Assembly (NCBI RefSeq): GCF_036850765.1
Contig: NC_089501.1
Coordinates: forward strand, 12,934,997 to 12,998,996
DNA: 64,000 bases
From: Saccopteryx bilineata
Taxonomy: Eukaryota; Chordata; Mammalia; Chiroptera; Emballonuridae
Reading direction: 5' to 3'
Both the position numbers and the translations under genes were made by a program. Position 1 is the stretch's first letter; every line of letters begins with the position of its first letter. The notes beneath the pieces were generated by a model. It had not been told where the DNA came from and made no database searches. It worked only from the letters and a program-made list of their open reading frames with translations. Below are positions 3,131 to 58,870 of the stretch, piece after piece.

Positions 3131-3739
3131 GGCAGTGCTTACACTTCAAAATGGGATTGTCTCTCCTATTGGGTTATTAGCATGTGGGGTTGAATCAGTC
3201 TATTCAGGACCTGAGCTGGGTTGGGGTTTTGTTAGGCTCAGTGAACCAAAGGCTTCCAGTTCCTCTAGCACTGGGCTTCCCTTGCCTACCACTGTACATA
3301 GCGCTGCTCTGAAGGGATTTCGTCAGTATTACTGCTCCACCCGCACCTTTCATCTGTCCCTGCACGTCTGCGCCAGAGAGGGCATCACACTCCTGCTCTT
3401 TCCCCAGGAGAAGACTGCTGTTGCTTGGCCTGCTGTGCTGGGCTTGTGTTTGGGCATGGAGGTGGGGTGTGCTTTCTCTGTTGTTCTTGCTCAGCTTCAG
3501 TTTTACGAAGGCCATGTACACCTAGATCTTAGAGGTGCTGTTAGCATTTTTGCCTCCTTCCTGCCTTTTACTTGCCATGCGCCCCGGGCAGATGTTTCCC
3601 GCCCCTCTCGGACCAGTAGGGAACCTCTGTTCAGCATTTGTATCTGGCCTTCCTCAGGGTACAGAGCTGCCCCTCTGACCACAGTCCGTCCTTTCTGGGG
3701 CCTGTGCACACTTGCTGCCCTCCCTCCAGCTGCTTAGGC

Positions 3740-35788: not shown

Positions 35789-36360
35789 TGTTGGTCAAAC
35801 AAGTTTGTAAATGTGATATATATGTTTGCTCGCTTTGGGTGTGAGAGATAGACTGTAAACTGGCAAAGCCATTATAGCCTAAGGCTATAAGACTATATAG
35901 GCTTAGTCTTAAAACTAAGCCTTTCCCTCCCTTCTAATACTAAGGTCTTCTCAAAACTAACCTTTTCCCCACACCACTGACTGTTGCATGATAGGGGGTG
36001 GTGCACTCTTATGAGGAATCCCATTTATGCCTCAGATAAGTGGCTTTGTATCACAGACTTCCTTATTTGTATTTTGGCTTAAAGGCTTTAATTTTCTACA
36101 CTATAAAGGAGATAGACCGGGGACTTTCTTTGGGGGTTCCTGCTATCAGCATTGCAGAGGCCTCCCTGACCCCTTGCCCTCCATGGGAAAAGCAGGTTTT
36201 CTGCTTTTCCCTTGTCTTCTCTTGTGGCTTGCCTGTCTTAGTGAGACACCAATTAACAGAATGGCCCACCATCCTCCGACCACACCATTTCTTTAAGGTC
36301 TACCCGAATCCAATGGGAACCTGCATATGAATGGCCACGATGGCGGCCCCTGGCCATACA
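35789..36360 (+). repeat. Solo LTR of the same ERV family (short type)
   Basis: A 572-bp LTR, TGTTGGTC to CCATACA, closely similar to the proviral LTR along its whole length, including CTATAAAG and the GAGACACCAATTAAC stretch near its R region. It is flanked by a near-perfect 5-bp duplication, CCATG/CAATG, and lies inside the SINE-B copy that starts at 35678. No internal viral sequence remains, so this is a product of LTR-LTR recombination. Confidence 0.92.
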
Positions 36361-36557
36361 CAATGGTAGTTGGCTTGAGCCCAAGTATTGCTGGCTTGAA
36401 GCCCAAGGTTTCTATCTTGAGCAAGGGGTCACTGGCTCGGCTGGAGCCCTTCTCCCCCATCAAGGCACATATGAGAAAGCAATCAGTGAACACCTAAAGT
36501 CCCACAGTGACAAGTTGATGCTTCTCATCTCTCTCCCTTCCTGTCTGTCTGCCCTTG

Positions 36558-37278
36558 TGTAGAGCCAGTAGACACAAGCACCATTGCAGCCGCATGGCCC
36601 ATGCAGGTTTGCATTAGATTTGGACAGACGGTAATGAAACAGTGGAGCCAAGGACTGGTGGCCATTACCTTTAATCCTAGCTTGCACCCGGAGGGCAAGT
36701 AAAAATACACACTGGGCTCCAAAACCCACTTTTTCAGCACTCAGAAAGCTACTGACTTATCCGAGTTTCCTAGAATCTAAGGTTTCTACCTCACCAGCCT
36801 TATTCACCTGTTTCCCATCTCCTTCTCTCTGCACAAACTCTGCACAAACTGGCTTCTCCTTTAACATTCCATCTTAGCTGCTTCTACTGGCCTCCTCCAC
36901 ATGGCCTTTCTCTGCTCTCCTCTTTAATGCTAATCTCAGGAACAGAGAGAGAGCAAGCTCCCAGTCTGCCCCACTTTGTAGTGTAGAAATCAAAACCTTT
37001 AATGCAATATACTTCCTTATTTTAATGCAAAATAAGGAAGTCTCTGATACAAAGTCACTTATCTGAGGCTTAATGGGATTCCTCATAAGAGTGCACCACC
37101 CACATCATGCAGCAGTCAAGGGTGTGAGGAAAAGCTTAGTCTTAAAACTCAGACAAAAAAAACAAAAAACAAACTCAGGCTATAATGACTGGCCTGCTTA
37201 CAGCCTGTCCCCCACACCCACTACAGACTATAAGTGAGCAAATATATGTATCATATTTGCAAACTTATTTGACCAACA
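36558..37278 (-). repeat. Solo LTR (long type), opposite orientation
   Basis: A 721-bp LTR in minus orientation (TGTAGAG at its left end, GACCAACA at its right), with the perfect 5-bp duplication CCTTG (36553-36557 and 37279-37283). The U3 start and U5 end match the proviral LTR. The middle differs and carries a long purine-rich section with a short internal tandem repeat (GCACAAACTCT twice, near 36833). It is inserted near the tail of the same SINE-B copy that holds the LTR at 35789. Confidence 0.92.
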
Positions 37279-37384
37279 CCTTGTTTATAGCTCTCTCTCT
37301 CACTCTCTCACTTAAAAAAAAAAAAAGTGAAAAACAGTTTCTAACCTTATTGTAAAGACATTTTGTGTAAACCTGGCAGTTTTT

Positions 37385-37734
37385 TTATTTTTATTTATTC
37401 TTTATTAAGTTAGAGGAAAGGAGGCAGAGAGACAGACTTTGGCATGCACCCCGACTGGGATACACCTGGCAAGGCTCCTGTGGACCAAATCTCTACCCAT
37501 CTGGGGCCACTGCTTCACTGCTCAGCAACTGAGCTATTTCAGCACCTGAGGCAAGGCCATGGAGCCATCCTCAACACCCAGGACCAACTTGCTCAAATCA
37601 TCCCAGCCATAGCTACAGGGGGTGGGGCGGGGGGAGCAGATGGTCGCTGCTCCTGTGTGCCCTGACCAGAAATCGAACCCAGGACTTTCACACTCCGGGC
37701 CAACGCTCTACCTCTGAGCCCAGCCAGCCAGGGC
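37385..37734 (-). repeat. Diverged SINE-C
   Basis: Minus-strand copy ending GCCAGCCAGGGC, much more diverged than the other SINE-C copies. Confidence 0.85.
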
Positions 37735-38108
37735 ATTTTTTGATATTTTAGAATATTTCATACTTCAGTGTTTAAAAAATCCATATGACTGTCATCTTAA
37801 TACAGCCAGATGTTTTGTTTATTCAGAAAAATCCCCGAGACATAAATTTGTTCTTTTTAAGTTAAATTGGAAGGAGGTAGAAGGAAAGAGGTGAAAGGAA
37901 GAGAGGAATCAAGCCAAAGGAGATAAAAGGAGACTGAGGAAGTTCAAAGTCCTGCCTGGAGGACCATATTCTGTGGAACCAGCCGCACCCAGCATTAGTC
38001 ACCTTTGAACTCTTCCTGTCCAGGTTCCGACTGTTTTCCACCTGAAACCCTGCCTACTCCTTCCACGGGCTGCAGCCTCTGCCCCAGGCTTTCTCAGTGC
38101 CTCCTAGC

Positions 38109-39070
38109 AGTGGTTCTCAAACTTTTTTGAAGTCAGGATGCACTTAAAATCCCACAAATAATTGTAGGCACACTATATACAAATTTCTGAGAAATATGTT
38201 ATAATAATTAAGTCAAATATTAAAGAAAAAAAAAAAAAGTCCAAACATGGTTTTATGGTAATTAAATGAAATAAATATGACAAAATTTAATTTATTCTGA
38301 CATTTAAAAAATTTTGTTATATGTTTCGAGTTATGCTTTTTAGAATTCGTAAAAAAGAGGGTTTAAAAAATAAAAAAACGACCAAAAAGTCATCTTTTTA
38401 TATATATAGATACATTCTTAGTAAGATTTAGTAAATTTGGCAGGTCCCGGCGCGAATGCGTTTTTTCATTCTTGTGTTTATGAGAAACATGAGCCTGATG
38501 TGTCCTAGTGATTTCTTCAATGTTTGGAAATATATTTGAAAGGCAAACTCTCATTTCCTCATCAGTACATTGAAGAATTCCTCTCTTTTTACTCTTGTGT
38601 TGAGGGTAGAAAATCCTAATTCACATAAAGAGGATGTTGAAAATTGTAGAAAAATTTCAAAGCTTTTTTAGATATTGCCACATATTATTCTTTTATAGAA
38701 ATCCAAAAGGCTTCAAGACACAATTCTTGTGTTTAATCATCAATCCAAAACCCCCACCATACATATCATCTTAACTTTACACCAAACAAAGGATAGAAGA
38801 AACTTGCCTCCAGTCTTTCCGGGGAACATGGGGGGTAGTGTAAACAATCCAGCACCACAGCTTAACAGCCTTTTGCAACCTAATCAGGCAAGTGAGGTAG
38901 AGGGTTGGGCAGACTGTCAGTTTACAGCCAATTCCCCACACCCCTGTCCCCCAAAAATCTAAACTCCAAAAACGCTGTTGGTTTTTTGGTCCCCAACAGG
39001 GACATATTTCTCTGGAATACCATAAAGTGCACCTGGAAATTTTCTAGGGTGCACACTTTGAGAGCTACTG
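38109..39070 (-). mobile_element. hAT-Charlie-like transposon remnant
   Basis: Ends CAGTGGTTCTCAAACTTT and, inverted, CAGTAGCTCTCAAAGTGT are typical hAT termini. Minus-strand sequence near 38600-38460 encodes a stretch containing CTDEEMRVCLSNIFPNI and THQAHVSHKHK, like the C-terminal end of Charlie/ZBED-type transposases. The flanking 8-mers match only partly (CCTCCTAG, TCCTAAGA). Old and non-functional. Confidence 0.75.
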
Positions 39071-39074
39071 TCCT

Positions 39075-40825
39075 AAGAGATTCTTGTAGAGTAAGGACTT
39101 GGTCCCATGACTGATCGATTTTGGTAATATTTACTTAGGAGCTGAATTTCGCTTTGGATGTTTATACCAAATAGTAGTGTCTTGGTATTCTACTAGGATA
39201 CATACTTCAAAAGAAAACCCAGGTTAGAAGAGGCAGAATGAAAGTTTTGTTTCACTTGTTTTGTTTGTTTGTTGAAGAATTGTTAAATAATTGAGCTCTT
39301 GAGTTTGCAGTGGGAAGCAGGTTTTCTTAAGACGTTTATAGTAAATGAAGGCTAATTTCTAGTTTATAACTCCTTTGTTTCTGTTATTGTTTCTCATCTC
39401 TGTGCCTCAAAGCTAGAGAAGTCAGCTGGAACTTTTTTTTTTTTTTTTTAGGAGTAAGCACTGGCACTTCACTGAGCCTCCTTTGCCCCAACCTGTCCTG
39501 TTTTAGTTCTGATTTTTTCCAGTTTCTTTCTTTTGGAGGAGGGTGGGAGGTTTCAAGTCTGGATAATCAGTGGGCCTACTTCCTCTGCTGAAAACAAAAC
39601 CTTCCAAGACGGTTTTGTGCCTGGCAAATATATTTAAAAACTACTTGAGACGAAACTTAGTTTATTTCTTTGAAGCTAGCCCCTAAAACTTGTCCCAGGT
39701 TTTACCCGGAGGCATCTTTAATATGCTGTACCAAGAAAAACAGCCCTGTTTTCTTAGCAGTTAATTTGTAAAACTGCTTTTAGGTAACAGTGCTAGTGCT
39801 TTTACTGAACCAAAGTTCGTGTGCCTGATGCTTTGAAAGATCAAAACTCTAGTTGGGAAAGGTTTATTGTTTCAAAGGCACCAACCGAGAACATGGGAGA
39901 CCTTGTGGTGCCTCAGACCCATCCTCCTCGCTGGAGAAGACCAAGGGTTTTTAAGGAGTCAGGGAACAGGGATGCAGAAGGATTTGTCTTCATTGGACGA
40001 CCTTGGAGTTTGGCCATTTACAGTAAAGGGGTGTCAACACCAGAACTATCTGGACAATGGACCCTTGGCTCCTAAATGAATCTAGTGTTCAAGTCCCAGT
40101 TATGCCCTGGCCCTTTCTATCCATCAGTGGGAAAAGGACTGTTCTGGGGAAAGTTCTCTCTACACATGCTTCAGATTCATGACTTGTGGTTTGGGTCTCT
40201 TATCTCTGAGAAACAATTCAGTGCCTTGTCAAACAGGATAGACCATTTTGAGCTGGTTCTGCTTTTACTGTGCCTCTGTTCATCCGAAGCTACCAGCTCT
40301 GTAGGTCCTTCTGATGATGTCATCATGTCATCATGTGCATTTGTTGGATCTTTCTACTTCCTCTGACATTAACAAGGGAAAATACTACCAGCTGTTAGCT
40401 GTCAGACCTGGGTTTGCAGTGTCTTACTATGGCCCCTACTTTTGCTCTATTAACAAACAGACCAATGAGCCTGAAAACATTTAATTCAGAGACTGAAAAT
40501 AAATTGCACCAGAGTCATAAAGGCAACAGCAAAAGTAGACTTAGATTTGCTTTACCAAAATGGCAGAGTGAAGATAACTCTTTTCTGGCTCAGTAGAATA
40601 AACTGTTGAAGGTCCCAGGCCAGGGAATAACATGAGGGCCAAGAACACCATGCCTGGGGATCCACTGTAATGAATAAATACACAAAGATGTTTGCATCAT
40701 CTTTCCAAAGGCAGTGTTATCTCAAATGATTTTCTAATATTAATTCTGCTGAGGCTTAATACCCTTTAAACAAAGTCTCTCAAACTAATGATTTCATTAA
40801 TTATTTTTGTTGGCACTTTTTTTTT
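39075..40825. other. Intron, with a possible old LTR at 39830-40440
   Basis: 39830-40440 is GC-richer, begins with GGTTTATTG (an inverted poly(A)-signal-like start) and has no coding signal. An antisense LTR is possible. The rest is unremarkable. Confidence 0.35.
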
Positions 40826-40826
40826 T

Positions 40827-41662
40827 AAGGCTCTATTTATTCATTTTTAGAGACGAGAGAGAGAGAAGGGGGAGAGGAGCAGGAAGCATCTACTCCCATA
40901 TGTGCCTTCACCAGTGTAAAGCCAGTAGCCATGGCCACCATCACAGCTGCCTGGCCCATGCAGGTTTGCATTTGATTTGAACAGACAGTAATGAAACAAC
41001 GGAGCCAAGAACTGGTGGGCCATTAGCTTTAATCCTAGCTTGCACTCGGCAGGCAAGAAATACACACAGTGGGAAAACACTTCCTTTTCCATTCAGGGCT
41101 CCTAAAGCCACTGACTTATCCGAGTTTCCTAGAATCATAGTTTCTACCTTACCAGCCTTATTCACCTCTGTTCCCCATCTCCTTCTCTCTGCACAAACTC
41201 TGCACAAACTGGCTTCTCCTTCAGCACTCCACCATCTTGGCTGCTTCTCCTGGCCTCCTCCACATGGCCTTTCTCTGCTCTCCTCCAGCATGGGCTCCTC
41301 TGCCCCATTTTATAGTGTAGAAATCAAAACCTTTAATATACAAACAAGGAAGCCTCTGATACAAAGTCACTTATCTGAGGCATAATGGGATTCCTCATGA
41401 GAATCCCACCCCACATCATGCAACAGTCAAGGGTGTGAAGAAGAGCTTAATCTTAAAACTAAGCCTCAGGCTATAATGACCCTGCTTGCTTACAGCCTGT
41501 CCCTCACACCCAATGCAAACTATATGTGAGCTAACATATACATCATATTTACAAACTTATTTGATCAACAACCAGGCAAGCCCAGGGTTTCAAACTGGTG
41601 ACCTCAGCATTCCAGGTCAATGATTTATCCACTGCGCCACCACAGGTGGTTGTTGGTCAGGC
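40827..41662 (-). repeat. SINE-A split by an LTR
   Basis: A minus-strand tRNA-derived SINE in two parts, 40827-40914 and 41571-41662, with its own duplication GTTGGCACTTT (about 40809 and 41664). Confidence 0.88.
40915..41570 (-). repeat. Solo LTR (long type) inside a SINE-A
   Basis: A 656-bp LTR in minus orientation (TGTAAAGCC to GATCAACA) with perfect 5-bp duplication ACCAG (40910-40914 and 41571-41575). It shares the long purine-rich middle section with the copies at 36558 and 45542. It splits a SINE-A at 40827-41662. Confidence 0.92.
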
Positions 41663-41969
41663 CGTTGGCACTTTCTAATAGTGAGATACAACCATTTGTT
41701 ATTTGTTACTGTCCCTTAATTAGAAATGCTGTATCTGTATCAGGAATAGGCAAACTTTTTCTTAAAGGAACAGATCATAAAGATTATAGGCTTTATATGG
41801 GCACTTACGTAACCATTTAAGAAGTACAACCTTCCATAGCCAGCAGGCTGTGGTTTGCCATCCTCTGGTTGATCACCTGACAAGTCTTGTCTGGTGGCTC
41901 TCCCATCACTCACATTGCTACACTTACTAATCCTCTGCTGTTTGTTCGACATCAAGAATGTAAATATCA

Positions 41970-42350
41970 GTAGTAGAGCGTCGGCCTGGCGTGTGGAAGT
42001 CCTGGGTTCGATTCCCGGCCAGGGCACACAGGAGAAGCGCCCATCTGCTTCTCCACCCCTCCCCTTCTCCTTCCTTTCTGTCTCTCTCTTCCCCTCCCGC
42101 AGCCAAGGCTCCATTGGAGCAAAGATGGCCCGGGCGCTGGGGATGGCTCTGTGGCCTCTGCCTCAGGCGCTAGAGTAGCTCTGGTCGCAACAGAGCGAAG
42201 CCCCGGATGGGCAGAGCATCGCCCCCTGGTGGGCGTGCCGGGTGGATCCCGGTCAGGCGCATGCAGGAGTCTGTCTGACTGCCTCCCTGTTTCCAGCTTC
42301 AGAAAAATACAAAAAAAATAAATAAACACAATTAAGTAACACTTAAAAAA
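41970..42350 (+). repeat. SINE-C, 5'-truncated
   Basis: Begins within the tRNA-like head (AGTAGTAGAGCGTCGGCCTG) and lacks the first about 25 bases including the A box, yet has a clean duplication (AAGAATGTAAATAT). So it is a truncated insertion, not a later deletion. Confidence 0.92.
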
Positions 42351-43138
42351 AAAGAATGTAAATATGAATATAAAGACAGTGCCTTTCCTAAGAGATCTCA
42401 CAGTCTCAATAGAAAGAAAAATACATTGGAAGTGTTTATTATTGTGTAGTGTGATGAATATTGTTCATGTCTGGAGGTAGCGTGACAGGATGAGGGTGTT
42501 GGGAAAGCTCCACAAAGAACATACATGATCTTGTGACAGGTTGCAGACGTTTCTAAGCTGCAAAGGGAGGACGGTGCATTCTAGGAAATGATAATATTTA
42601 TTCCTTAATGGAAGACATTTATTTTGTCTTGTTTTCCTATCTCAATATGAGAGCAGTTCCTAGATAATAGCATAGATAATATCAGCTCATTGACGACAAA
42701 GAATATCTGTAGAAATTCTGAGGAAAAGCACATTATGCAATAATTATAGAGCAAAATAAGTGTACCATTGAAACATAATTTTTTTTTAACAGACACTGAT
42801 CACCAGGTAGCTTAGACCTAAAACACATGGATTTGGACATGTAAGTAATATGATTTCATGAAGTTTAGTGTGCTAGGATTCTTGAGACTCTATTCCAAGT
42901 TTGTTACCAACTGTAGTTTTTAGCAAAGTCTGTCATTTATATTAGTTTCTCCATAACAGGACAGGTTTGAAGTAGACAGTTTCTAAGGCCCCTTCCAAGT
43001 CCAGATGCTGTGACTATAATTAGACAGAATGCATATCAATAGCTACTCTTTTACTCTGCAGAAATATTATTTGTTCAGATTTTCAACTCCCACTTAATTG
43101 AATTCCAGTCAACCCCGTAGTCCCTGAACTGTGATGTA

Positions 43139-43731
43139 CAGTGTGTCCGTCAAGTCTGCACTTTTGACCGGTCACAGGAAAGCAACAAAAGATGATAGAA
43201 ATGTGAAATCTGCACCAAATAAAAGGAAAACTCTCCCAGTTTCATACCTATTCAGTGCAGTTCAATGTGGGCTCACGCACAGATTTTTTAGGGCTCCTTA
43301 GGTAGCTATCCCGTATAGCCTCTACAGACTCATCACTGACTGATGGCCTACCAGAACGGGGTTTCTCCACCAAACTGCCGGTTTCCTTCAACTGCTTATC
43401 CCACCGAGTAATGTTATTCCTATGTGGTGGCGCTTCGTTATAAATGCGCCGATATTCACGTTGCACTTTGGTCACGGATTTGAATTTAGCAAGCCACAGA
43501 ACACACTGAACTTTCCTCTGTACCATCCACATCTCAACTGGCATGGCTGTGGGCTGCTCCACTGTATACACGGTGTTACGTCACCATCTGCGCATGCGCA
43601 CATACTGCCATATCATCCTACAGAAACTGGGAGGGTTTTTCTTTTATTTGGTGCAGATTTCACATTTCTATCATCTTTTGTTGCTTTTCTGTGACCGTTC
43701 AAAAATGCACCATGACTTTACGGACACACTG
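43139..43731 (-). mobile_element. Mariner-like element with internal deletion
   Basis: A 593-bp element with terminal inverted repeats starting CAGTGTGTCCGT and flanked by TA on both sides (43137-43138 and 43732-43733). The inverted similarity runs about 105 bp inward, including a shared block ending AATGTGAAATCTGCACC. On the minus strand, 43571-43248 encodes 107 residues that look like the N-terminal helix-turn-helix DNA-binding part of a mariner transposase (AKFKSVTKVQREYRRIYNE, then ETGSLVEKPRSGRPSVS). The catalytic half is missing, so it is non-autonomous. The family resembles mariners known from invertebrates, suggesting horizontal origin (inference). Confidence 0.85.
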
Positions 43732-43799
43732 TATGTAGTAGGGTACCATATGCAAGAAAAAAAAGTGAGAAGTTATGGTATCCTTGAAGTTATATGCTG

Positions 43800-44368
43800 T
43801 CACCATTCCATATAACTGGAGAGGCAGACCCACTACATTCAAATTCTGGCCCTGCCTGACCAGGCGGTGGTGCAGTGGATAGACCGTCGGACTGGGATGC
43901 GGAGGACCCTGGTTCAAGACCCCGAGGTCGCCAGCTTGAGCATGGGCTCATCTGGTTTGAACAAAAAGATCACTAGCTTAGAGCAAAAAGGTCACTGGCT
44001 TGAGCAAGGGGTTACTCCGTCTGCTGTAGCCCCACGGTCAAGACACATATGAGAAAGCAATCAACGAACAACTAAGGTGTTGCAATGAAAAACTGATGAT
44101 TGATGCTTCTCATCTCTCTCCATTCCTGTCTGTCTGTCCTTATCTATCCCTCTCTCTCTCTGACTCTCTCTCTCTCTCTCTCTCTGTCTCTGTAAAAAAA
44201 AAACAAAAAACAAATCCAGGCCCTGCCACATTCTAGCTCTGTGACTTCAGGTAAATTCCTTAGCTTTTCTGTAACTAAGTTTCCTTATCTGCAAAATGGA
44301 AACACTGTAGGACCTGTCTCATAGGGTTGTTATAGTGGTTAAATACATTAATATGTGTAAAGGTCTTA
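43800..44368 (+). repeat. MIR split by a SINE, truncated by an LTR
   Basis: Pieces 43800-43854 and 44218-44368 (CATTCTAGCTCTGTGACTTC to GGGTTGTTATAGTGGTTAAA). The right edge is the insertion point of the LTR at 44369, and continuation after 44870 is not evident. Confidence 0.6.
43855..44210 (+). repeat. SINE-B inside a MIR
   Basis: Head GCCTGACCAGGCGGTGGTGC and a TC repeat near the tail. Near-perfect duplication around CAAATTCTGGCCCT / CAAATCCAGGCCCT. Confidence 0.92.
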
Positions 44369-44870
44369 TGTACGGCTGGTGCAGAGGCCGCTGTGGCCGT
44401 GCAGGTTCTCATTGGATTGGGCAGATGGTAACGGATGTGGAGCCAGAGGATGGTGGGCCATTCCGTATATTAAAGTTGATGAGGAAACAGGCAGGAAAGA
44501 TCGCTTCCCTTTCTCTCAGGGCTCCCAAGCCCTGACTTGGTGTGGTGTCTGCTTCCACAACTCGGACTCATTCTCCATACTCACCCTCCAGACTCCCAGT
44601 CCCCCACCAACCTCAGCACTCCCCCCTTCTCCTGCACTTTCTCTCTCTGTGTGTGTCCCTCTCCTCCCCAGCAAAACTGGCTGGGGGAAAAACCCTTCTC
44701 CAGCAAACAACAGAGCCTCCCAAGCAGGAACGCAATCTACAGTCTGCCGCCCTGAAGGCGAGCACCCCCAAACTCCCCTAGACTATATACACATGGTGCT
44801 GCCCCGCACCAGTGCAACAATTAGGCAAAATATAAGTGATCAAATCTGTTATAAATTTGTTTGCCCAACA
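44369..44870 (-). repeat. Solo LTR (third type)
   Basis: A 502-bp LTR in minus orientation with perfect 5-bp duplication TCTTA (44364-44368 and 44871-44875). Its ends match the family (TGTTGGGCAAAC and a terminal TACA), but the body is nearest to the copy at 50379. It is inserted at the end of a MIR element. Confidence 0.9.
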
Positions 44871-45541
44871 TCTTAGAATTGTGTTTGGCAAAAATAAACA
44901 TTCAAGGTATGTCAGTTGTTATTACTAGTAAACATTATTATAAGCAATGCATTTATAAAATTTGATATTAAATTACAACCACTAAAATGTTTAGAAGTTG
45001 CTCGAAAATGCTAAAAAATAACTATGTGGTATTTAAAATTTCCATTTAGTTATACATGAATAGAAAGCATACTGACAAGAATCACTCCAAAACACTAGTA
45101 TGTTTAATAGTCTGAAAATATAGCCCCTAATGAATTAAGCTTCTCAGAATTTATACTCTTGTTTTCTTTTTGAAAACGAGCTAGCCCCATATAATCAGTA
45201 AAATGCAGCAGAAATGATACTGTAAGACTTCTAAGGTTATGTCATAAGAATTCTTGTGGCTGTCACCTTGGTATCTTGGAATACTTGCTCCAGGGACAGC
45301 TCGCAGCCATTTAAGAAGTCCAGTTACTTTGAGACCAGCATGCCGTGGCGAAGTCTGATCTTGCTAAAGGGAGAGATGTTTCACCAGCCCCTGCTGTTCC
45401 CGCATCCCAGCCCAGGTGCCAGGCAGTGAGAGAAAAAAACAGATAATTCCAAACGCAGTGACATCTGACTGGCACACCCCACGTGGGAACTGCCCAGCTT
45501 AACTCAGTCAACCCTTGCTTAGAACCATGAAGGATGATGAT

Positions 45542-46251
45542 TGTTGGGCAGGCGAAATATATTATGCTCACTTTGTTAAAGATGGCGCTGCCCAGGTGAT
45601 GATATTGGTTGCCCTTTTTGCTTGGGATGGGCGTGATTATATTAATGTGTATTGGGGACAGGCTGTAAGCAGGCAGGATCATTATAGCCTAAGGGCTTAG
45701 TTTTAGACTAAGCCCTTCCCACCCTTTTTTGATGTAGGGTGGTGCACTAATGAGGAATCCCATTATGCCTCAGATAAGTGACTTTGTATCAGAGACTTCC
45801 TTATTTGTATATTGGATTAAAGATTTTGATTTCTACATTATAAAATGGGGGCAGACCAGGAGTTAGTTCTTTCGGTTCCTGAGATTAGCATTAGAGAGGA
45901 GAGCAGAGAGATGCCACGTGGGGGAGGCCAGGAGAAGCAGCCAAGAAGGCAGAGTGCTGAAGGAAAAGCCAGTTTGTGCAGAGAGAAGGAAGGAGATGGG
46001 AAACAGAGGTGAATAAAGTCTGGTGAGCTAGAAACTTTTGATTCTAGGAAACTCGGATAAGTCAGTAGCTTTGTGAGCACTGAATGAGTGGGTTTTGGAG
46101 CCCAGTGTGTGTTTTTACTTGCCCACGGGTGCAAGCTAGGATTAAAGATGATGGCCCACCAGTTCTTGGCTCTGTTGTTTCTTTACCAACTGTCCGAATC
46201 CAATGCGAACCTGCATGTTGAATGGCCGCGGTGGCGGCTCCTGGCTTTACA
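45542..46251 (+). repeat. Solo LTR (long type)
   Basis: A 710-bp LTR, TGTTGGGC to TTTACA, with perfect 5-bp duplication ATGAT (45537-45541 and 46252-46256). Middle section as in the copies at 36558 and 40915. Confidence 0.92.
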
Positions 46252-47229: not shown

Positions 47230-48883
47230 TTTTTTTTTTTCTAGGTCTTTTTTTTTTTTTTTTTTTTAATAAATTTTTATTAATGGTAATGGGATGACAT
47301 TAATAAATCAGGGTACATATATTCAAAGAAAACATGTCTAGGTTATTTTGTCATCAAATTATGTTGCAAACCCCTCGCCCAAAGTCAGATTGTCCTCCGT
47401 CACCCTCTATCTAGTTCTCTGTGCCCCTCCCCCTCCCCCTAACTCTCTCCCTCCCTCCCTCCCATGTCCTCCCTCCCCCCCCCCACCCTTGGTAACCACC
47501 ACACTCTTGTCCATGTCTCTTAGTCTCATTTTTATGTTCCACCAATGTATGGAATCATGTAGTTCTTGTTTTTTTCTGATTTACTTATTTCACTCCTTAT
47601 AATGTTATCAAGATCCCACCATTTTGCTGTAAATGATCTGATGTCATCATTTCTTATGGCTGAGTAGTATTCCATAGTGTATATGTGCCACATCTTCTTT
47701 ATCCAGTCTTCTATTGAAGGGCTTTTTGGTTGTTTCCATGTCTTGGCCACTGTGAACAGTGCTGCAATGAACATGGGGCTACATGTGTCTTCACGTATCA
47801 ATGTTTCTGAGGTTTTGGGGTATATACCCAGTAGAGGGATTGCTGGGTCATAAGGTAGTTCTATTTGCAGTTTTTTGAGGAACCACCATACTTTCCTCCA
47901 TAATGGTTGTACTACTTTACAGTCCCACCAACAGTGAATGAGGGTTCCTTTTTCTCCACAGCCTCTCCAACATTTGCTATTCCCCGTCTTGTTGATAATA
48001 GCTAATCTAACAGGAGTGAGGTGGTATCTCATTGTAGTTTTGATTTGCATTTCTCTAATAACTAATGAAGCTGAGCATCTTTTCATATATCTGTTGGCCA
48101 TTTGTATCTCTTTCTGGGAGAAGTGTCTGTTCATGTCCTCTTCCCATTTTTTTATGGGATTGTTTGTTTGTTTGTTGTTGAGTTTTATGAGTTCTTTGTA
48201 AATTTTGGATATTAGGCCCTTATCTGAGCTGTCGTTTGAAAATATCAGTTCCCATATAGTTGGCTGTCTGTTTATTTTGATATCAGTTTCTCTTGCTGAG
48301 CAAAAACTTTTAATTCTGATGTAGTCCCATTCATTTATCTTTGCCTTCACTTCTCTTGCCATTGGAGTCAAGTTCATAAAATGTTCTTTAAAACCCAGGT
48401 CCATGATTTTAGTACCTATGTCTTCTTCTATGTACTTTATTGTTTCAGGTCTTATATTTAGGTCTTTGATCCATTTTGAATTAATTTTAGTACACGGGGA
48501 CAGGCTGTAGTCGAGTTTCATTCTTTTGCATGTGGCTTTCCAGTTTTCCCAACACCATTTGTTGAAGAGGCTTTCTTTTCTCCATTGTGTGTTCTTGGCC
48601 CCTTTATCAAAGATTATTTGACCATATATATGTGGTTTTATTGCTGGGCTTTCTATTCTGTTCCATTGGTCTGAGTGTCTATTTTTTTGCCAATACCATG
48701 CTGTTTTGATTATCGTGGCCCTATAATATAGTTTAAAGTCAGGTATTGTAATGCCCCCAGCTTCATTCTTTTTCCTTAGGATTGTTTTGGCTATTCGGGG
48801 TTTTTTATAGTTCCATATAAATCTGATGATTTTTTGTTCCATTTCTTTAAAAAATCTCATAGGGATTTTGATGGGAATTGCAT
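47230..48883 (-). mobile_element. 5'-truncated L1, minus strand, with long ORF2 remnant
   Basis: The 3' part of a LINE-1. From right to left it holds the C-terminal end of ORF2 (open from 48860 to 47532, 442 codons without a stop), a 3' UTR and a poly(A) tail (T-run at 47249-47268). The protein contains typical L1 C-terminal text such as KQLQ-free blocks [15 protein letters not shown] and [16 protein letters not shown]. The 16-bp duplication GAGTCCTGTGTATTTT flanks it (47214 and 48884). Lacking the 5' end, endonuclease and RT core, it is dead on arrival. The unbroken frame implies a fairly recent insertion. Confidence 0.95.
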
Positions 48884-48973
48884 GAGTCCTGTGTATTTTA
48901 TCGTCTGCCCTAATTCAATGAGAACCTGCATGTGCATGGCGGCGATGGCCGTGACTACTGGCCATACAGTATT

Positions 48974-51750: not shown

Positions 51751-51880
51751 TTTTTTTTTTTTTTTTTTGACAGAAACAGAGTCAGAGAGAGGGACAGATA
51801 GGGACAAACAGGAAGGGAAAGATAAGAAGTATCAATTCTTCATTGCAGCTCCTTAGTTGTTTAGTGATTGCTTTCTCATA
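51751..51880 (-). repeat. SINE-B, left part, split by the provirus
   Basis: The poly(T) end and body of a tRNA-derived SINE in minus orientation. It stops at CTTTCTCATA and resumes after the provirus at 57906 as TCATACATGCCTTGACC. The SINE's own duplication (TCTTCTAGATTTCTTT at about 51729 and TCTTGTAGATTTCTTT at about 58127) shows that it was in place before the ERV. Confidence 0.9.
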
Positions 51881-52145
51881 TGTTGGTCAAATAAGTTTGT
51901 AAACATGATATATATGTTTGCTCGCTTGTGACTTATAATGGGTGTGGGGGACAGGCTATAAGCAGGCCAGGTTGTTGTAGCCTGAGGTTTGGTTTTGGGA
52001 CTAAGCTTTTCCCCACACCCTTGACTGATTATATGATCTGGGTGGTGCACTCTCATGAGAAATCCAATTATGCCTTGGATAAGTGACTTTGTATTGGAGA
52101 CTTCCTTGTTTGTATATTGGATTAAGGGATTTTGGTTTTCTACAC

Positions 52146-52152
52146 TATAAAG
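52146..52152 (+). promoter_or_regulatory. LTR TATA box
   Basis: TATAAAG lies about 265 bp into the 525-bp LTR, directly upstream of a GGGACAGACC stretch where transcription would be expected to begin. The same box occurs at 57646-57652 in the 3' LTR, and an equivalent CTATAAAG occurs in the related solo LTR at 35789-36360. Confidence 0.7.
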
Positions 52153-52295
52153 TGGGACAGACCAGGAGCTCAGACACACAGTTCCTGCTATCACAATTGC
52201 AGGGGCTCCCCTGATCCCTTGCCCTTCATGGGAAGAGCTGGTTTTCTGCTTTTCCCTTGTCTTCTTTTGTGGTTTGCCTGTCTTGGTGAGACACC

Positions 52296-52301
52296 AATAA
52301 A
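52296..52301 (+). terminator. LTR polyadenylation signal
   Basis: AATAAA about 145 bp downstream of the TATA box, the order expected for a poly(A) signal at the end of R. The copy at 57796-57801 in the 3' LTR would end the genomic transcript. Confidence 0.65.
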
Positions 52302-52407
52302 TAGGATGGCCCCCCATCCTCTGACTCCGCCATTTCTTTATCGCCTGCCCGAATCCAATGGGAACCTGCATGTGAATGGTCACGATGACGGCTCCTGGCC
52401 TTACAAC

Positions 52408-52430
52408 TGGCGTAGTTTCCGGCAGGATTC
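52408..52430 (+). other. Primer-binding site, tRNA-Ser type with a 3-nt interruption
   Basis: Two bases after the 5' LTR comes TGGCGTAGT, then TTC, then CGGCAGGATTC. The 9-nt and 11-nt blocks are complementary to the 3' end of the tRNA-Ser(AGA)-type acceptor and T arm (ending ACTACG-CCA). The TTC between them has no partner and would form a bulge. No other common tRNA 3' end I can recall fits as well. A Ser primer is the naming feature of the ERV-S group. Confidence 0.75.
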
Positions 52431-52440
52431 AGAGATTGGT

Positions 52441-53853
52441 ATGGAGCCACCACCCTTGATGGGTGGGATAGAGTACTGGTTGCTGCTCTGGCTCCCCATG
52501 GCTGTCCTTTTAGGGGCCATGGGCTACATGTTTTTTACTCAAGAGGAAACTGCCCGAGGTCAAAAGCTTCAGCATGAATTGCAAACAGAACGGCAGAAAA
52601 GGCTGGAACTGGAGCGAGCACTGGAGAAGGAATTACGGGTTCGAGAGTTGCAGTTTACCCTGGAAGCTGAACGTCTTCACCGGCAGTTGTTGGAGAAACA
52701 ACTCCGGATTCAAGAGCTCGAGTCTCAGCTTCTGGCCAAAAGCCAGCAGCCACAGGAGCCTAAACAGTCACCAAAGGAGCAGCAGCATCCGTGCCGGTGG
52801 ATTGGCTTTGAGTCAGCGGGAGCCGGCGCTTGCAACTCCTCTTCTGAGGATGAGAAGGCTCAGGCTGAAGCTGCCATACGCACACTGAGAGCCCGACCAG
52901 TTGTCGCCAAGAAGGTAAAAACCCAGCAACAAAGAGTCCCTCAGGGGCAGCCACAGCCTCCTGCCCAGGTAATGGAACACTCTGTGGTCCGGCCCTATAC
53001 CCAGGCAGAGCTGATGGAGTTGGGGGCACAATTTAGGCAGAAACCTACTGAATCCCTGGTAGCCTGGTTACTACGATTATGGGATATAGGGGTGGATGGC
53101 ATCATGCTCTCCAGAACAGAGATGGAGAAATTGGCCGCCATTACCACACACTCTTCCTTGAGGCAGCGTCTTCAGAACTGCCATGGCAACCCAGGAGACC
53201 ATACCCTATTAGAATGGGTGATGGCTGCCATTCGTATGGTCTGGCAGAATGCTGGAGAACTGCCGGGGGCAATGAGTCGGTGGCAGTGCTACAGTGAGTT
53301 AGTAAAGGTCCTTCGAGAACTAGGTATGAAGAATGCTGTTTTCAACCCTGGGTCTCGTGGGCCAGACGAAGAAGTGTTTACGGCCAAAATGAGGGAATTT
53401 GTCCTTGCTAGCGCCCCATCAGCCCTTTTTGGGTCACTTGTGGCTATCTTGGGCCCCTATGTGGGGCAGCCCATCAATGCAGTTACACAGATGGTAGCAG
53501 ATTTGGGAGAGCTGGAGGCCGCTCGGGATCATAAAGCAGTGAGGGCTGCTGCCTATGTTTCCCCCCCAACTAACAAGGGAAACGGGCCTGTAAAGGTTAC
53601 CCGAACGCAGATGTGGGTAGACTTGATTGCGGCTGGAGCAGATAAGGGGAAATTGGATGGCCAGTCTAATAAAATTCTTTTGGAGCTTTGGCGGCAGCTT
53701 AAACCAGAACAGAAGTTCCAGCCACTGAGACGAAAGGCCCCAGCAGCTACCAATAAAACGTTTGGTGCGCGCACAGCTCGGTTACAAGATTATATGATAG
53801 AGACAGCCGAGGGAGAGGGGAACTCCCAAGACCCATTGTACCAGTTTGAATAG
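52441..53853 (+). CDS. gag: Gag of class III ERV, with N-terminal membrane anchor and coiled coil
   Basis: Capsid precursor of 470 residues. I chose the ATG at 52441 because it lies downstream of the primer-binding site and has a strong context (G at -3 and +4). The same frame is open back to 52132, but that part lies in the LTR. Layout: residues 12-32 form a hydrophobic helix (YWLLLWLPMAVLLGAMGYMFF); residues 35-102 are a heptad-rich coiled coil of Leu/Glu/Arg/Gln; residues 103-180 are Pro/Gln-rich with an acidic SSSEDE patch; residues 184-365 are capsid-like, with WLLRLWDIGVDG and VLRELGM resembling the MERV-L Gag/Fv1 region; the tail is basic. There is no CCHC zinc knuckle, a feature also missing from foamy-virus Gags. 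The membrane anchor suggests assembly on an internal membrane, as seen for MERV-L particles in the ER (inference). The frame ends with TAG at 53851-53853, directly continuous with pol. Confidence 0.9.
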   Translation: MEPPPLMGGIEYWLLLWLPMAVLLGAMGYMFFTQEETARGQKLQHELQTERQKRLELERALEKELRVRELQFTLEAERLHRQLLEKQLRIQELESQLLAKSQQPQEPKQSPKEQQHPCRWIGFESAGAGACNSSSEDEKAQAEAAIRTLRARPVVAKKVKTQQQRVPQGQPQPPAQVMEHSVVRPYTQAELMELGAQFRQKPTESLVAWLLRLWDIGVDGIMLSRTEMEKLAAITTHSSLRQRLQNCHGNPGDHTLLEWVMAAIRMVWQNAGELPGAMSRWQCYSELVKVLRELGMKNAVFNPGSRGPDEEVFTAKMREFVLASAPSALFGSLVAILGPYVGQPINAVTQMVADLGELEAARDHKAVRAAAYVSPPTNKGNGPVKVTRTQMWVDLIAAGADKGKLDGQSNKILLELWRQLKPEQKFQPLRRKAPAATNKTFGARTARLQDYMIETAEGEGNSQDPLYQFE

Positions 53854-53882
53854 GAAAAAGGCCGAGGGACCCGTCTAACGGG
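53851..53882 (+). promoter_or_regulatory. gag/pol stop codon with downstream hairpin (possible readthrough site)
   Basis: gag ends in TAG and pol continues in the same frame without any other stop, the arrangement gammaretroviruses use for stop-codon readthrough. Sixteen nt after the TAG is a GC-rich hairpin, CCCGT (53870-53874), loop CTA, ACGGG (53878-53882), followed by the G-rich run GGGGATGGGCGGGG. Alternatively, pol could start at the ATG at 53884, which has a strong context (G at -3 and +4). Readthrough is inference. Confidence 0.5.
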
Positions 53883-56800
53883 GATGGGCGGGGACCGGAG
53901 GCCACATGTGGAACTGGCTATCCACTGGTCCCCTTCCAACGTACAACAGGTGTTGGCCTTGGTGGATACAGGTGCAGAATGTTCCCTTCTCTATGGAAAC
54001 CCAGAGCGGTTTGCTGGGACCCCAGTGGCCATTGACGGTTATGGGGGCCAAACTGTCCAAGTGAAGCCAATAACTATTCCATTGGGGATAGGGAGACTGC
54101 CTCCTAAGCCATATAAGGTGTATGTATCTCCTATTCCTGAATATATTTTGGGGGTAGATGTCTTGCAAGGACTGTGGTTGGAAACTACAGCTGGGGAGTT
54201 CCAGCTGCGGATCAGGGTTGTGAAGGCAGTATTGCGGGGACATGCATCACATTCCCCTTTGCAATTACCCATCCCTCGGCGTGTGACTAACACCAAGCAG
54301 TACCGCCTGCCAGGTGGTTATGAAGAAGTCACAGGGACAATCCTTGAACTAGAAAAGGTGGGGATCATCCGGCCAGCACACAGTCCTTACAACTCCCCAG
54401 TATGGCCTGTGCGCAAAGCAGATGGAACCTGGAGAATGACAGTAGATTACAGGGAACTTAATAAAGTTGTTCCCCCTTTGCACGCTGCTGTTCCCTCGAT
54501 AGCTAACATGATGGATCGGCTAAGCCATGAGTTGGGGACATACCACTTTGTGGCAGACTTGGCCAATGCTTTTTTCTCTATTGATATAGCCGCAGAGAGT
54601 CAAGACCAATTTGCCTTCAGTTGGGAAGGGAGACAATGGACCTTTATAGTGTTACCCCAGGGCTATTTGCATAGCCCCACCTTGTGCCATGGGCTGGTGG
54701 CTGCTGACCTGGCTAAATGGAAACAGCCAGAGGTAGTCTGCATGTACCATTATATTGATGATATTATGCTAACTAGTGATTCTCTTTCAGAATTGGAGCA
54801 AGCAGTCCCTACCCTGCTATCCCATTTGAAAGCATGTGGCTGGGCAGTTAACGAGAACAAATTACAAGGACCTGGGTTATCTGTTAAATTCTTGGGAGTT
54901 GTCTGGTCGGGTAAGACAAAAGTTATCCCTGACGCAGTTATAGATAAGATTCAAGCATACCCCGTGCCCACTACGGTAAAACAGTTACAGGAATTCTTAG
55001 GTTTGTTGGGGTATTGGCGAGCATTTATACCGCATTTGGCTCAGTTACTACGCCCCTTGTACAACCTTATTCGAAAGGGGGTTCGCTGGGATTGGACTGA
55101 GCAGGCGCAAGGTTCATTTGCAGCTGCTAAGAGAGCTGTCAAGGTGGCACAGGCCTTGAATGTGTTTGATCCTGCCAGGCCCTGTGAGCTGGATGTTCAT
55201 GTAACCTCGGAGGGGTTTGGATGGGGCTTGTGGCAGTGGACAGAGCGCCTACGGCAACCTATTGGATTTTGGTCCCAATTGTGGAAAGGTGCTGAAGTTC
55301 GTTACTCATTAGTAGAGAAGCAGCTGGCAGCTGTGTATGCTGCCCTCCTGGCAACTGAGAGTATTACAACCACAACACCAGTTACAGTCAAAACAACATA
55401 CCCTATAGCTGGATGGGTGAGAGATTGGGCAACTAAACCACATAGTGGTATGGCCCAAATGTCTACCCTGGCCAAGTGGGGTGCCTATCTGCAACAACGC
55501 TGTGCTCTTAGCACCAGCCCATTGAGGGCAGAACTGCAGGAGGTCTTGGGTCCAGTCACCTATGCGACCTTAGTGTCAGGTGCAACTGGGGCTCAGGAGG
55601 CAGAACCTGAGGTCAGTCCTTACCAGGAGGGGCGGGTGCCCATCCCCGAAGATGCCTGGTATACTGATGGTTCCAGCAGGGGCCAACCTGCCAAATGAAC
55701 GGCTATCGCCTTCCATCTGGCCACTGAGACTATTTGGATGGACATGGGTACAGGCCAAAGCAGCCAATGGGCAGAATTAAGAGCTGTTTGGCTAGTTGCC
55801 CATAATGAACCTTCACCTCTGGTGATCTGTACTGACAGTTGGGCTGTCTATCGTGGACTGACCCTTTGGATTGCTACTTGGCACATTAACCAGTGGATGG
55901 TAATGCACCGTCCATTATGGGGTCAGGCCATGTGGCAGGACTTATGGGAAATAGGACACCAGAAGCAGGTGACAGTATATCATGTCACAGGGCATGCCCC
56001 TCTAGCCCATCCTGGGAATGATGAGGCAGATACGTTGGCAAGGGTGCGATGGTTGGAGACTGCACCTGCAGGTGATGTGGCACAGTGGCTCCACCGGCGC
56101 CTGCTCCATGCAGGACAGAAAACTATGTGGGCTACGGTTAAGGCTTGGAACTTGCCTGTGTCCTATGCAGAGGTACTTGCAGCCTGTGAGCAATGTGCAG
56201 TATGTTCCAAGGAACACCCTCGGAGACCACTGGTGTCACCTGGACAGATCCAGAGGGGTCATGTCCTACTGACACGATGGCAGATAGACATCATTGGACC
56301 CTTACCAAAGTCAGAAGGGTACCAGTATGCAGTCACTTGTGTAGATACTGCCACCGGGCTGCTTGCTGCTTACCCCACTCGTAACCCTGACCAGAGGGCA
56401 GTCATACAGGCTCTGGACCGCCTGAGTGCTGCATACGGGCGACCGCTGGTCCTTGAAAGTGACAATGGTACCCACTTCACTGGTTCAACAGTGAGGCAAT
56501 GGGCTCAAAAGCTGGGGGTGGACTGGAAGTACCATGTTCCCTACCACCCCCAGGCTGCTGGCATCATTGAGCGTTATAATGGACTCTTAAAGCAGGGACT
56601 GCAACAGGAGGGGGGCACCGGCTCTCTTACTGGATGGACACGCCGCTTATGGACAGTACTTCGGATTTTGAATGAGCGACCTCGACGGGGAAGCCCAGCT
56701 CCAGTAGAGGCCCTCCTGCATCGGACAGCTGCCCCTATTCAATTGCAGATACGCACTAAGGACATTTTACTCAAGCCAGGTTTCGGACAGCAGGGCAACG

Positions 56801-57249
56801 TGCTCTTGCCTGCTCCAACAGCCCTTCTTAAAGGACAATGGCTTCAATGGACTTGGCCCTGGACTGTACAGGCCCCCCATCTGAGATGGGTGGCCTTGTT
56901 GGCACCATGGGGAAAGGGGTTACAGGTGGACCTCCAGTTAACTCCTTGGGCAACCAGCGCCTGGCCACCTAAGGTAGAAGTGTATTATCCCTTGAGTGCT
57001 CAAGGGGACAGCATTTTGAAGGGCACCTTTGTAATTTCTTTATGGCCAATAATGAGTTCCCCTATTTTACTACACATAGAACCAGCAGATGCTGGTGTAT
57101 TGGCCAATAAGGTTTGGTACGCCCGCTCAGGGCGGCCTCTGGTGCCAGCTACAGTGCTGTCTGCAGATAAAACTCTGGCCTGTATTCTGCCAGAGGGAAG
57201 AGATTTGCCTCTCTTGGTGCCACTGACAGCTCTCTCATTTCGCCCATAG
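53854..57249 (+). pseudogene. pol: pro-pol of class III ERV (protease, RT, RNase H, integrase) with one in-frame stop
   Basis: Same frame as gag, beginning right after its TAG; the first Met codon is 53884. Counting from that Met: aspartic protease with DTGAE (residues 28-32) and ILGVDVL (88-94); reverse transcriptase from about 145 to 400 with VADLANAF (Asp225) and the catalytic YIDD box (290-293); RNase H starting at YTDGSS (593-598). A TGA at 55696-55698 interrupts RNase H. The frame then continues unshifted to 57249 and holds the other RNase H acids (in WAELRA, CTDSW and NDEAD). Integrase follows, with an H-x4-H and C-x2-C zinc site near 56092-56196 and D, D35E residues in IDIIG, SDNGTHF and GIIERYN. 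About 220 further residues follow the catalytic Glu. They show no dUTPase motifs, although MERV-L and HERV-L carry that domain downstream of integrase. Catalytic residues look intact throughout. As sequenced, this copy should make protease-RT but a truncated RNase H and no integrase without readthrough. Confidence 0.93.
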
Positions 57250-57367
57250 TTTTTGATCTGTTAATCCTATTGCTGTAGTTGGTACTATTTCTGTTTATGC
57301 AATGTATCCTACTCTTTGCACAGTGACCATCATGGAAGATGCCTGTGGTTTAGATTGTAAAGCGAGC

Positions 57368-57380
57368 AAAAGGGGTGGAA
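57368..57380 (+). other. Polypurine tract
   Basis: AAAAGGGGTGGAA lies directly against the 3' LTR, where plus-strand DNA synthesis is primed. One T interrupts the purines. The 118 bp between the pol stop (57249) and this tract hold no open frame of note. Confidence 0.8.
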
Positions 57381-57905
57381 TGTTGGTCAAATAAGTTTGT
57401 AAACATGATATATATGTTTGCTCGCTTGTGACTTATAATGGGTGTGGGGGACAGGCTATAAGCAGGCCAGGTTGTTGTAGCCTGAGGTTTGGTTTTGGGA
57501 CTAAGCTTTTCCCCACACCCTTGACTGATTGTATGATCTGGGTGGTGCACTCTCATGAGAAATCCAATTATGCCTTGGATAAGTGACTTTGTATTGGAGA
57601 CTTCCTTGTTTGTATATTGGATTAAGGGATTTTGGTTTTCTACACTATAAAGTGGGACAGACCAGGAGCTCAGACACACAGTTCCTGCTATCACAATTGC
57701 AGGGGCTCCCCTGATCCCTTGCCCTTCATGGGAAGAGCTGGTTTTCTGCTTTTCCCTTGTCTTCTTTTGTGGTTTGCCTGTCTTGGTGAGACACCAATAA
57801 ATAGGATGGCCCCCCATCCTCTGACTCCGCCATTTCTTTATCGCCTGCCCGAATCCAATGGGAACCTGCATGTGAATGGTCACGATGACGGCTCCTGGCC
57901 TTACA
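57381..57905 (+). repeat. 3' LTR of the provirus
   Basis: A 525-bp copy of the 5' LTR. It follows a purine-rich tract and is followed by the target duplication TCATA (57906-57910). Its TATAAAG (57646-57652) and AATAAA (57796-57801) point toward the NT5DC1 exon at 63774, so this copy could act as an intronic promoter or polyadenylation site for the host gene (inference). Confidence 0.95.
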
Positions 57906-58125
57906 TCATACATGCCTTGACCAGGGGGCTACAAGCAGAGTGAGTGACCCCTTGCTCAAGCCAGTGACCTTGGGCTTCAAGCCAGCAACCTTTGGGCTCA
58001 AGCCAGTAACCCCTCACTCAAGCTAGAGAACCCTCCTCGCTCAAGCCGGCAACCTTGGGCTTTCGAACCTGGGTCCTCCGCATCCCAGCCCCATGCACTA
58101 TCCACTGCACCACCACCTGGTTAGG
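57906..58125 (-). repeat. SINE-B, right part, split by the provirus
   Basis: The tRNA-like head end of the SINE interrupted at 51880, running through CACCACCTGGTTAGGC. The first five bases (TCATA) repeat 51876-51880. Confidence 0.9.
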
Positions 58126-58870
58126 CTCTTGTAGATTTCTTTATTTGCAAATATATTATATAGAAAGAAATCATATAGGATCATGAATAGGAACTATTTG
58201 TTTTTTAATAATTTCAGTTTAATCTTTTGCCCTCTATAAATAAAACAAATTAGAACATAGTTAATCTATTGTTTATCTTCAAAAATATTTCAAATATCTT
58301 AAAAAATATTTCAAAGACTATTTGCAAAAATATTTTACTATCTCTTGGCAAAAAAAAATTTGTATATGTATGTATTTCACAAAATTAATTATATCGTTTC
58401 TTACAGCAAATAACATTTCTCATAACTAAACATTTAACTGTTCACTGGCATGCTTGTAAAGGTCATGTTTCAGGCTCTCCTAAGTTATGTTCTACCCCGG
58501 AAACGATCGCAGACTTTAACTGGAAGCTGATAGTGGAGGTTTTAGTACCCCAGCATCTGGAATCCTTGTGGCCAACAGCTTTAAAAACTCTAGCCACAGA
58601 TCTCTCAAAGAGTAGTTAGACAGTTAACCAAAAAAAAAAAAAAAAAAAAAAAAAGCTTATTCTGTGATGATAGAAATAGCGATATGGCACAATTGTCTGT
58701 TAAATTAAAAAGTGTTTTTAATATTCAAGTTGTACCTTTTTCCCCTTTTACCACAAGAGGTCCCTAAATCCTGAGTCATGTTTGATATATGTAGACCATT
58801 TTATGTGCATATCAGACTGTTGGCAACACTTTGCTGTTTATTCTCATGATTCCATATTAACCCATTTTTT

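What the first reader, a model, noticed from the sequence alone, without database searches (positions are those of the whole stretch)
51881..57905. A very young, nearly complete class III ERV in a bat intron
The two 525-bp LTRs differ at one base, the 5-bp duplication is perfect, the split SINE can be read on both sides, and gag and pol show only two in-frame stops over 4.8 kb with no visible frameshift. Class III ERVs are mostly old in mammals apart from mouse MERV-L, so a recent bat copy implies a lineage active within about the last half-million years. It may still be polymorphic in the population.
Basis: partly seen in the sequence, partly recalled or inferred. Interest (0 to 1): 0.88.

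Follow-up and report, generated by a model that had tools for sequence, protein, structure and literature searches.

The report
Young env-less class III endogenous retrovirus
This is a recently inserted, nearly complete endogenous retrovirus of a usually ancient class, one of at least 130 closely similar copies in the same mammalian genome, so the family seems to have multiplied within the last few million years.

Summary
Confirmed: a 6,025-bp provirus at 51881-57905 with two 525-bp LTRs differing at one base, a perfect TCATA duplication and one plus-strand gag-pro-pol frame with two stops. No dUTPase, env or zinc finger was found. It is a class III (ERV3) element on the dUTPase-less, ERV-S-like side, with mole and galliform Pol relatives, not ERV-L proper. 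TAG 53851 is the normal gag terminator: 19 of 20 sampled copies have it. Only TGA 55696 (RNase H) breaks this copy. The genome holds at least 130 copies at 97% or more protein identity, this one included; 14 of the 43 seen in both lists are open in gag and pol. LTR pairs of 55 sampled copies differ by a median of 4 bases, about 1.7 My at 2.2e-9; this copy, with 1, is among the youngest. 63 of 74 copies carry three extra bases inside the serine primer site; 10 scattered copies have it uninterrupted. Bat host is an inference; rhinolophoid, intron and polymorphism are untested. Four older solo LTRs nearby show a long-lived lineage.

The parts
51876..51880 (.). target-site duplication TCATA, left copy
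51881..52405 (+). 5' LTR, 525 bp, TG...CA; TATAAA at 52146, AATAAA at 52296
52408..52430 (+). primer-binding site: two blocks of 9 and 11 bases matching host tRNA-Ser(AGA), three unmatched bases between
52441..53850 (+). gag, 470 aa from the first ATG after the primer site; N-terminal hydrophobic stretch, then a charged heptad-like segment (by eye), MHR motif at 53038-53076, no zinc finger
53851..53853 (+). TAG gag terminator, in frame with pro-pol (readthrough inferred)
53854..55695 (+). pro, RT and first part of RNase H; DTG 53965, YIDD 54751
55696..55698 (+). TGA inside RNase H, after the first catalytic Asp; breaks pol in this copy
55699..57246 (+). rest of RNase H, integrase (zinc site, D-D-E core); no dUTPase hit
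57366..57380 (+). polypurine tract next to the 3' LTR, same in 19 of 20 sampled copies
57381..57905 (+). 3' LTR, one difference from the 5' LTR at 57531
57906..57910 (.). target-site duplication TCATA, right copy
51758..51880 (-). tail half of the split tRNA-type SINE
57906..58130 (-). head half of the split SINE
35789..36360 (+). older solo LTR of the same family (K2P 0.18), flanks CCATG/CAATG (4 of 5)
36558..37278 (-). older solo LTR (K2P 0.23), flanks CAAGG/CAAGG
40915..41570 (-). older solo LTR (K2P 0.25), flanks CTGGT/CTGGT
45542..46251 (+). older solo LTR (K2P 0.21), flanks ATGAT/ATGAT

Best explanation
A recent retrotransposition product of an env-less, dUTPase-less class III (ERV3, ERV-S-like) family that expanded in this mammal over roughly the last few million years. 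Its RNA starts in the 5' LTR (inferred from TATA and polyA signals), Gag ends at a conserved in-frame TAG and Pro-Pol is made by occasional readthrough of it (inferred), reverse transcription is primed by tRNA-Ser at an interrupted primer site (inferred from the match), and integration makes a 5-bp duplication (shown). With no env, copying is most likely inside the germ-line cell (inferred); the hydrophobic Gag start may put particles at internal membranes (weak inference). This copy has a broken pol (TGA 55696), so it was made with proteins from another copy or broke since.
For: LTRs 1/525, perfect duplication, split SINE. Domains RVP, RVT_1, RNase H, rve; no dUTPase hit; 131 bp between the pol stop codon and the 3' LTR, so no room for env. 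No zinc finger, no GPY/F, YIDD. Pol tree of 33 rows: window, mole, Hipposideros and two galliforms form a 100/100 clade apart from the branch with dUTPase-bearing amphibian/fish relatives. 40 of 41 listed LTR matches (two of them the window's own) are 99-100% identical; 83 polB and 90 gag rows at 97% or more, own copy included; union 130, both genes open in 14 of 43. Gag TAG in 19 of 20. LTR pairs median 4/525 in 55 copies. tRNA-Ser(AGA) in the host genome.
Against: A TGA in pol and the interrupted primer site mean this copy is not intact. No expression data or reads were available. The RNA fold behind the gag TAG is not exceptional (z -1.26; 20 of 200 shuffles fold as well). A second Gag window is almost as hydrophobic as the N-terminal one (1.90 against 1.96). 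No HERV-S, ERV-L or ERV4 reference was in the tree. Copies were ranked by likeness to this one, so the young age of the sample is biased.
Confidence: 0.88

Rival explanations
1. Recent germ-line infection by an enveloped relative (env supplied in trans or lost), rather than intracellular copying.
For: HERV-S carries a class I env and env capture is described as common in class III (PMC4724089 passages). Env elsewhere in this genome was not searched for.
Against: In 70 of 79 sampled rows the 3' LTR was read at the spacing expected without env, and the polypurine tract is next to the LTR in 19 of 20.
Confidence: 0.12
2. An ERV-L element proper (like MERVL/HERV-L).
For: Class III Pol, 5-bp duplication, no env, no zinc finger.
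Against: No dUTPase hit behind integrase, the mark of the ERVL lineage (PMC5753468 passage). Serine-type primer site, though 2 of 87 canonical HERVL also use S (PMC4724089 passage), so this is weak.
Confidence: 0.05
3. An old insertion whose LTRs were homogenised by gene conversion or by assembly error.
For: 9 of 64 copies with both LTRs read lack matching 5-bp flanks (two belong to a tandem pair, one looks shifted by a base), so recombination happens.
Against: This copy has a perfect duplication, two stops in 5.1 kb, and the sampled family is similarly young.
Confidence: 0.04

Closest known systems
HERV-S / HERV18 (ERVS lineage of ERV3)
   Same: class III, no dUTPase, Pol near avian class III (PMC5753468 and PMC4724089 passages); serine primer site (recalled)
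   Different: the human class III groups are old (LTR divergence 13-42%) and HERV-S has a class I env; this one has no env and is very young
XtERV-S of Xenopus tropicalis
   Same: serine primer site, gag and pol in one frame separated by a stop, YIDD, very young (PMC8278194, sections 5 and 8 and passages)
   Different: the frog element has a dUTPase-like segment and an env, its gag stop is TGA, and its serine site is uninterrupted
MuERV-L (MERVL) of mouse
   Same: env-less class III family with recent amplification and copies with open gag and pol (PMC5930517 passages)
   Different: ERV-L has a dUTPase; placement on a different Pol branch is expected, not tested
Pol-encoding relatives in Talpa occidentalis (P0001) and Phasianus colchicus (P0003)
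   Same: 72-81% and 57-63% protein identity over the aligned parts
   Different: different hosts; their DNA context was not seen

Membership tests
class III / ERV3 | 5-bp target duplication | tested here: met
   55 of 64 sampled copies with both LTRs read match; criterion PMC4299795 passage
class III / ERV3 | no Gag zinc finger, no GPY/F in integrase | tested here: met
   motif scan; criteria PMC4299795 passage
class III / ERV3 | pro in frame with pol; YIDD in RT | tested here: met
   criteria PMC8278194
ERVL lineage | dUTPase behind integrase | tested here: not met
   no dUTPase hit at E up to 10; relatives P0007, P0028, P0030, P0044 do carry PF00692
ERVS lineage | lacks dUTPase | tested here: met
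   criterion PMC5753468 passage
ERVS lineage | serine tRNA primer site (criterion recalled, and by analogy to XtERV-S) | tested here: inconclusive
   9 + 11 bases of host tRNA-Ser(AGA) with three extra bases between; 10 of 73 sampled copies uninterrupted
HERV-S group | class I env | tested here: not met
   131 bp between the pol stop codon and the 3' LTR
ERVS lineage | Pol clusters with HERV-S and avian class III | tested here: inconclusive
   galliform relatives in the same 100/100 clade; no HERV-S sequence was available
ERV4 | crocodilian/turtle Pol clade lacking dUTPase | tested here: inconclusive
   turtle proteins fall in other clades; no ERV4 reference in the tree
spumavirus | pol in a separate frame with its own start; env present | tested here: not met
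   criterion PMC8278194

The most novel reading that the evidence does not exclude
A class III family still moving in a living bat has spread mostly with a three-base interruption inside its tRNA-Ser primer site; uninterrupted copies keep re-appearing because the second strand copies the tRNA itself, and the interruption is kept because it weakens pairing with 3' tRNA fragments that silence such elements. That would extend the priming-versus-silencing trade-off proposed for mouse ETn, MusD and IAP (PMC7472051) to class III.
Probability: 0.3. Interest if true: 0.78.

Novelty: new variant of a known kind. Interest (0 to 1): 0.64.

Why it matters
Mammalian class III ERVs are mostly treated as fossils; PMC5930517 (passage) says MuERV-L appears to be the only ERV-L member reactivated in recent times. 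A large, very young, env-less and dUTPase-less class III family with some open copies would be a second mammalian case, on another branch. Its two co-existing primer-site forms in near-identical copies are a natural record of how the primer site is inherited.

Tried and rejected
ERV-L proper: lowered by the missing dUTPase. TAG 53851 as damage: rejected. A host tRNA gene with the three extra bases: 0 matches with up to 2 mismatches and a T-arm of canonical form, against 2 for the canonical end with up to 1; a tRNA with another T-arm would be missed. Relatives in viral contigs: none for polB, polA or gag, and none for one SINE and one LTR 24-mer; the tool may leave out near records. Other proviral internals in the window: none by tblastn or blastn, apart from a match in the solo LTR at 36093-36404. 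The 460-aa minus-strand frame 47535-48914 reads as a LINE-1 ORF2 fragment by eye; it has no Pfam hit. Structure behind the gag TAG: not exceptional. Papers on recent class III activity in bats: none seen in the listings, which is no proof of absence. My first union of 132 copies was too high: two wide-spaced pairs were counted twice, mended to 130.

Full report
Observation. The two LTRs (51881-52405, 57381-57905) are 525 bp each and differ once, at 52031/57531; TCATA flanks both sides. Joining only the host flanks restores one tRNA-type SINE: of 15 matching stretches in the window, two are the flanks themselves and 10 of the other 13 cross the join. The single + frame 52126-57246 has 2 stops against 85 and 81 in the other + frames.

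Anatomy. TATAAA 52146 and AATAAA 52296 lie in the LTR. The primer site starts at 52408 and matches the host tRNA-Ser(AGA) gene in blocks of 9 and 11 bases with three extra bases between; 6 of 300,000 shuffles reach the first block. Gag is 470 aa from ATG 52441, with a hydrophobic start (best 19-residue Kyte-Doolittle window 1.96, but a window at residue 320 reaches 1.90), an MHR motif and no zinc finger. No Pfam family fits it (best E 0.037), and a fold could not be had. Its one database relative is a Rhinolophus ferrumequinum protein, 150 of 335 aligned columns identical, that ends near the same place. Pol has protease (weak, E 0.00031), RT, RNase H and integrase, without a dUTPase hit. There are 131 bp between the pol stop codon and the 3' LTR, so no env.

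The two stops. TAG 53851 is the gag end. In the own genome 36 of 83 listed polB rows have an open-frame length of 1,131 aa, the distance from the codon after this TAG to the pol end (614+1+516); in 26 of the 36 no stop is flagged inside the match. In 20 sampled copies the codon is TAG followed by GAAAAA in 19 and TAT in 1. XtERV-S of frogs has the same layout with a TGA (PMC8278194, sections 5 and 8 read). TGA 55696 interrupts RNase H in this copy. At the LTR age about 0.23 stops are expected in 4.8 kb; one or more has chance 0.20, two or more 0.02, which fits one damaging stop better than two.

Family. In the own genome (2.61 Gb, 256 contigs) 40 of 41 listed LTR matches, two of them the window's own, are 99-100% identical; 40 of 2,606 candidates were scored. 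83 polB rows (83 of 5,880 candidates scored) and 90 gag rows (90 of 9,528) are 97-100% identical, the own copy included; 64 of 83 and 62 of 90 have no stop flagged inside. Joined by position they are 130 distinct proviruses; 43 are in both lists, 41 of them at the usual gag-to-pol distance (3252-3264), and 14 of the 43 are open in both genes (gag without a stop, pol frame of at least 1,127 aa with none flagged). These are lower bounds and biased to copies like this one.

Age. 79 rows were examined, 20 from every fourth polB row and 59 from the top of the gag list; one provirus is in both, so 78 copies. 64 rows gave both LTRs; 6 failed at the 5' and 9 at the 3' LTR. 55 of the 64 have matching 5-bp flanks and differ by 0 to 14 bases, median 4, about 1.7 My at 2.2e-9. 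The 9 without matching flanks (two from a tandem pair on C2, one perhaps shifted by a base) were left out of that median. The window copy has 1 difference: 0.43 My, 95% 0.01-2.4 My; 7 of 55 have 0 or 1. Rates are recalled, not measured here. Four solo LTRs at 35789-46251 with 5-bp flanks (three perfect, one 4 of 5) lie at K2P 0.18-0.25 from the young LTR, so the LTR lineage is much older than the burst. A genome search with an older LTR did not complete.

Primer site. Among 73 readable sampled copies 62 have the interrupted form, 10 the uninterrupted (two of these are the tandem pair, with identical LTRs) and 1 another; with the window, 63 of 74. On the 5' LTR tree the two forms need 7 changes (shuffled mean 9.5; 3 of 500 shuffles as low, so there is some clustering), strong branches force only 2, and no LTR column separates the forms. 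No host tRNA gene with the extra bases was found. In Retroviridae second-strand synthesis copies the tRNA, so new copies can regain the tRNA form; PMC7472051 (passages read) reports for mouse ETn, MusD and IAP that the commonest primer sites mismatch their tRNA, that for ETn and MusD perfect ones are spread over the trees, and proposes reduced silencing by 3' tRNA fragments. The same reading is plausible here, but recombination between copies or poor tree resolution would also scatter the forms.

Classification. A passage of PMC5753468 states that ERVL encodes dUTPase and ERVS lacks it; passages of PMC4724089 say that HERV-S lacks dUTPase, has a class I env and clusters in Pol with avian class III. 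With 32 database proteins that I chose, the window Pol forms a 100/100 clade with mole, Hipposideros and two galliform proteins, apart from the branch holding the dUTPase-bearing rows (the Hipposideros row has a long branch and odd composition). It is therefore filed as class III (ERV3) on the ERV-S-like side, env-less, and not as HERV-S itself.

Host. The SINE type (recalled) and Rhinolophus and Hipposideros relatives suggest a bat. The 13 largest scaffolds seen (59-408 Mb) hold 2,580 of 2,612 Mb, which fits 2n=26, as recalled for Saccopteryx bilineata (taxonomy only). The closest Pol is from a mole, so bat remains an inference. No exon was found, but only 10 of the 143 frames of 75 aa or more outside the element were tried against Pfam, without a match, so 'intron' is neither shown nor excluded.

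Noticed in passing
window 35789-46251: Four solo LTRs of the same family within 10.5 kb, three with perfect 5-bp flanks; further LTR fragments up to about 50.7 kb.
   Followed up: partly
L019, L028, L039, L048 (C2:188262581-188274182): Two proviruses 5,497 bp apart that share one LTR: a tandem array, both with the uninterrupted primer site.
   Followed up: partly
window 47535-48914 (-): 460-codon open frame that reads by eye as a LINE-1 ORF2 fragment, so LINE-1 may be recently active too.
   Followed up: partly
P0060 (Hipposideros larvatus), P0055 (Dasypus novemcinctus), P0064 (Galeopterus variegatus): Database host-gene models carry stretches related to this Pol, perhaps annotation over ERV remnants.
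   Followed up: no
P0001, P0003, P0012: Long Pol frames of the same clade in a mole and two galliform birds hint at wide and perhaps recent activity or transfer of this lineage.
   Followed up: no
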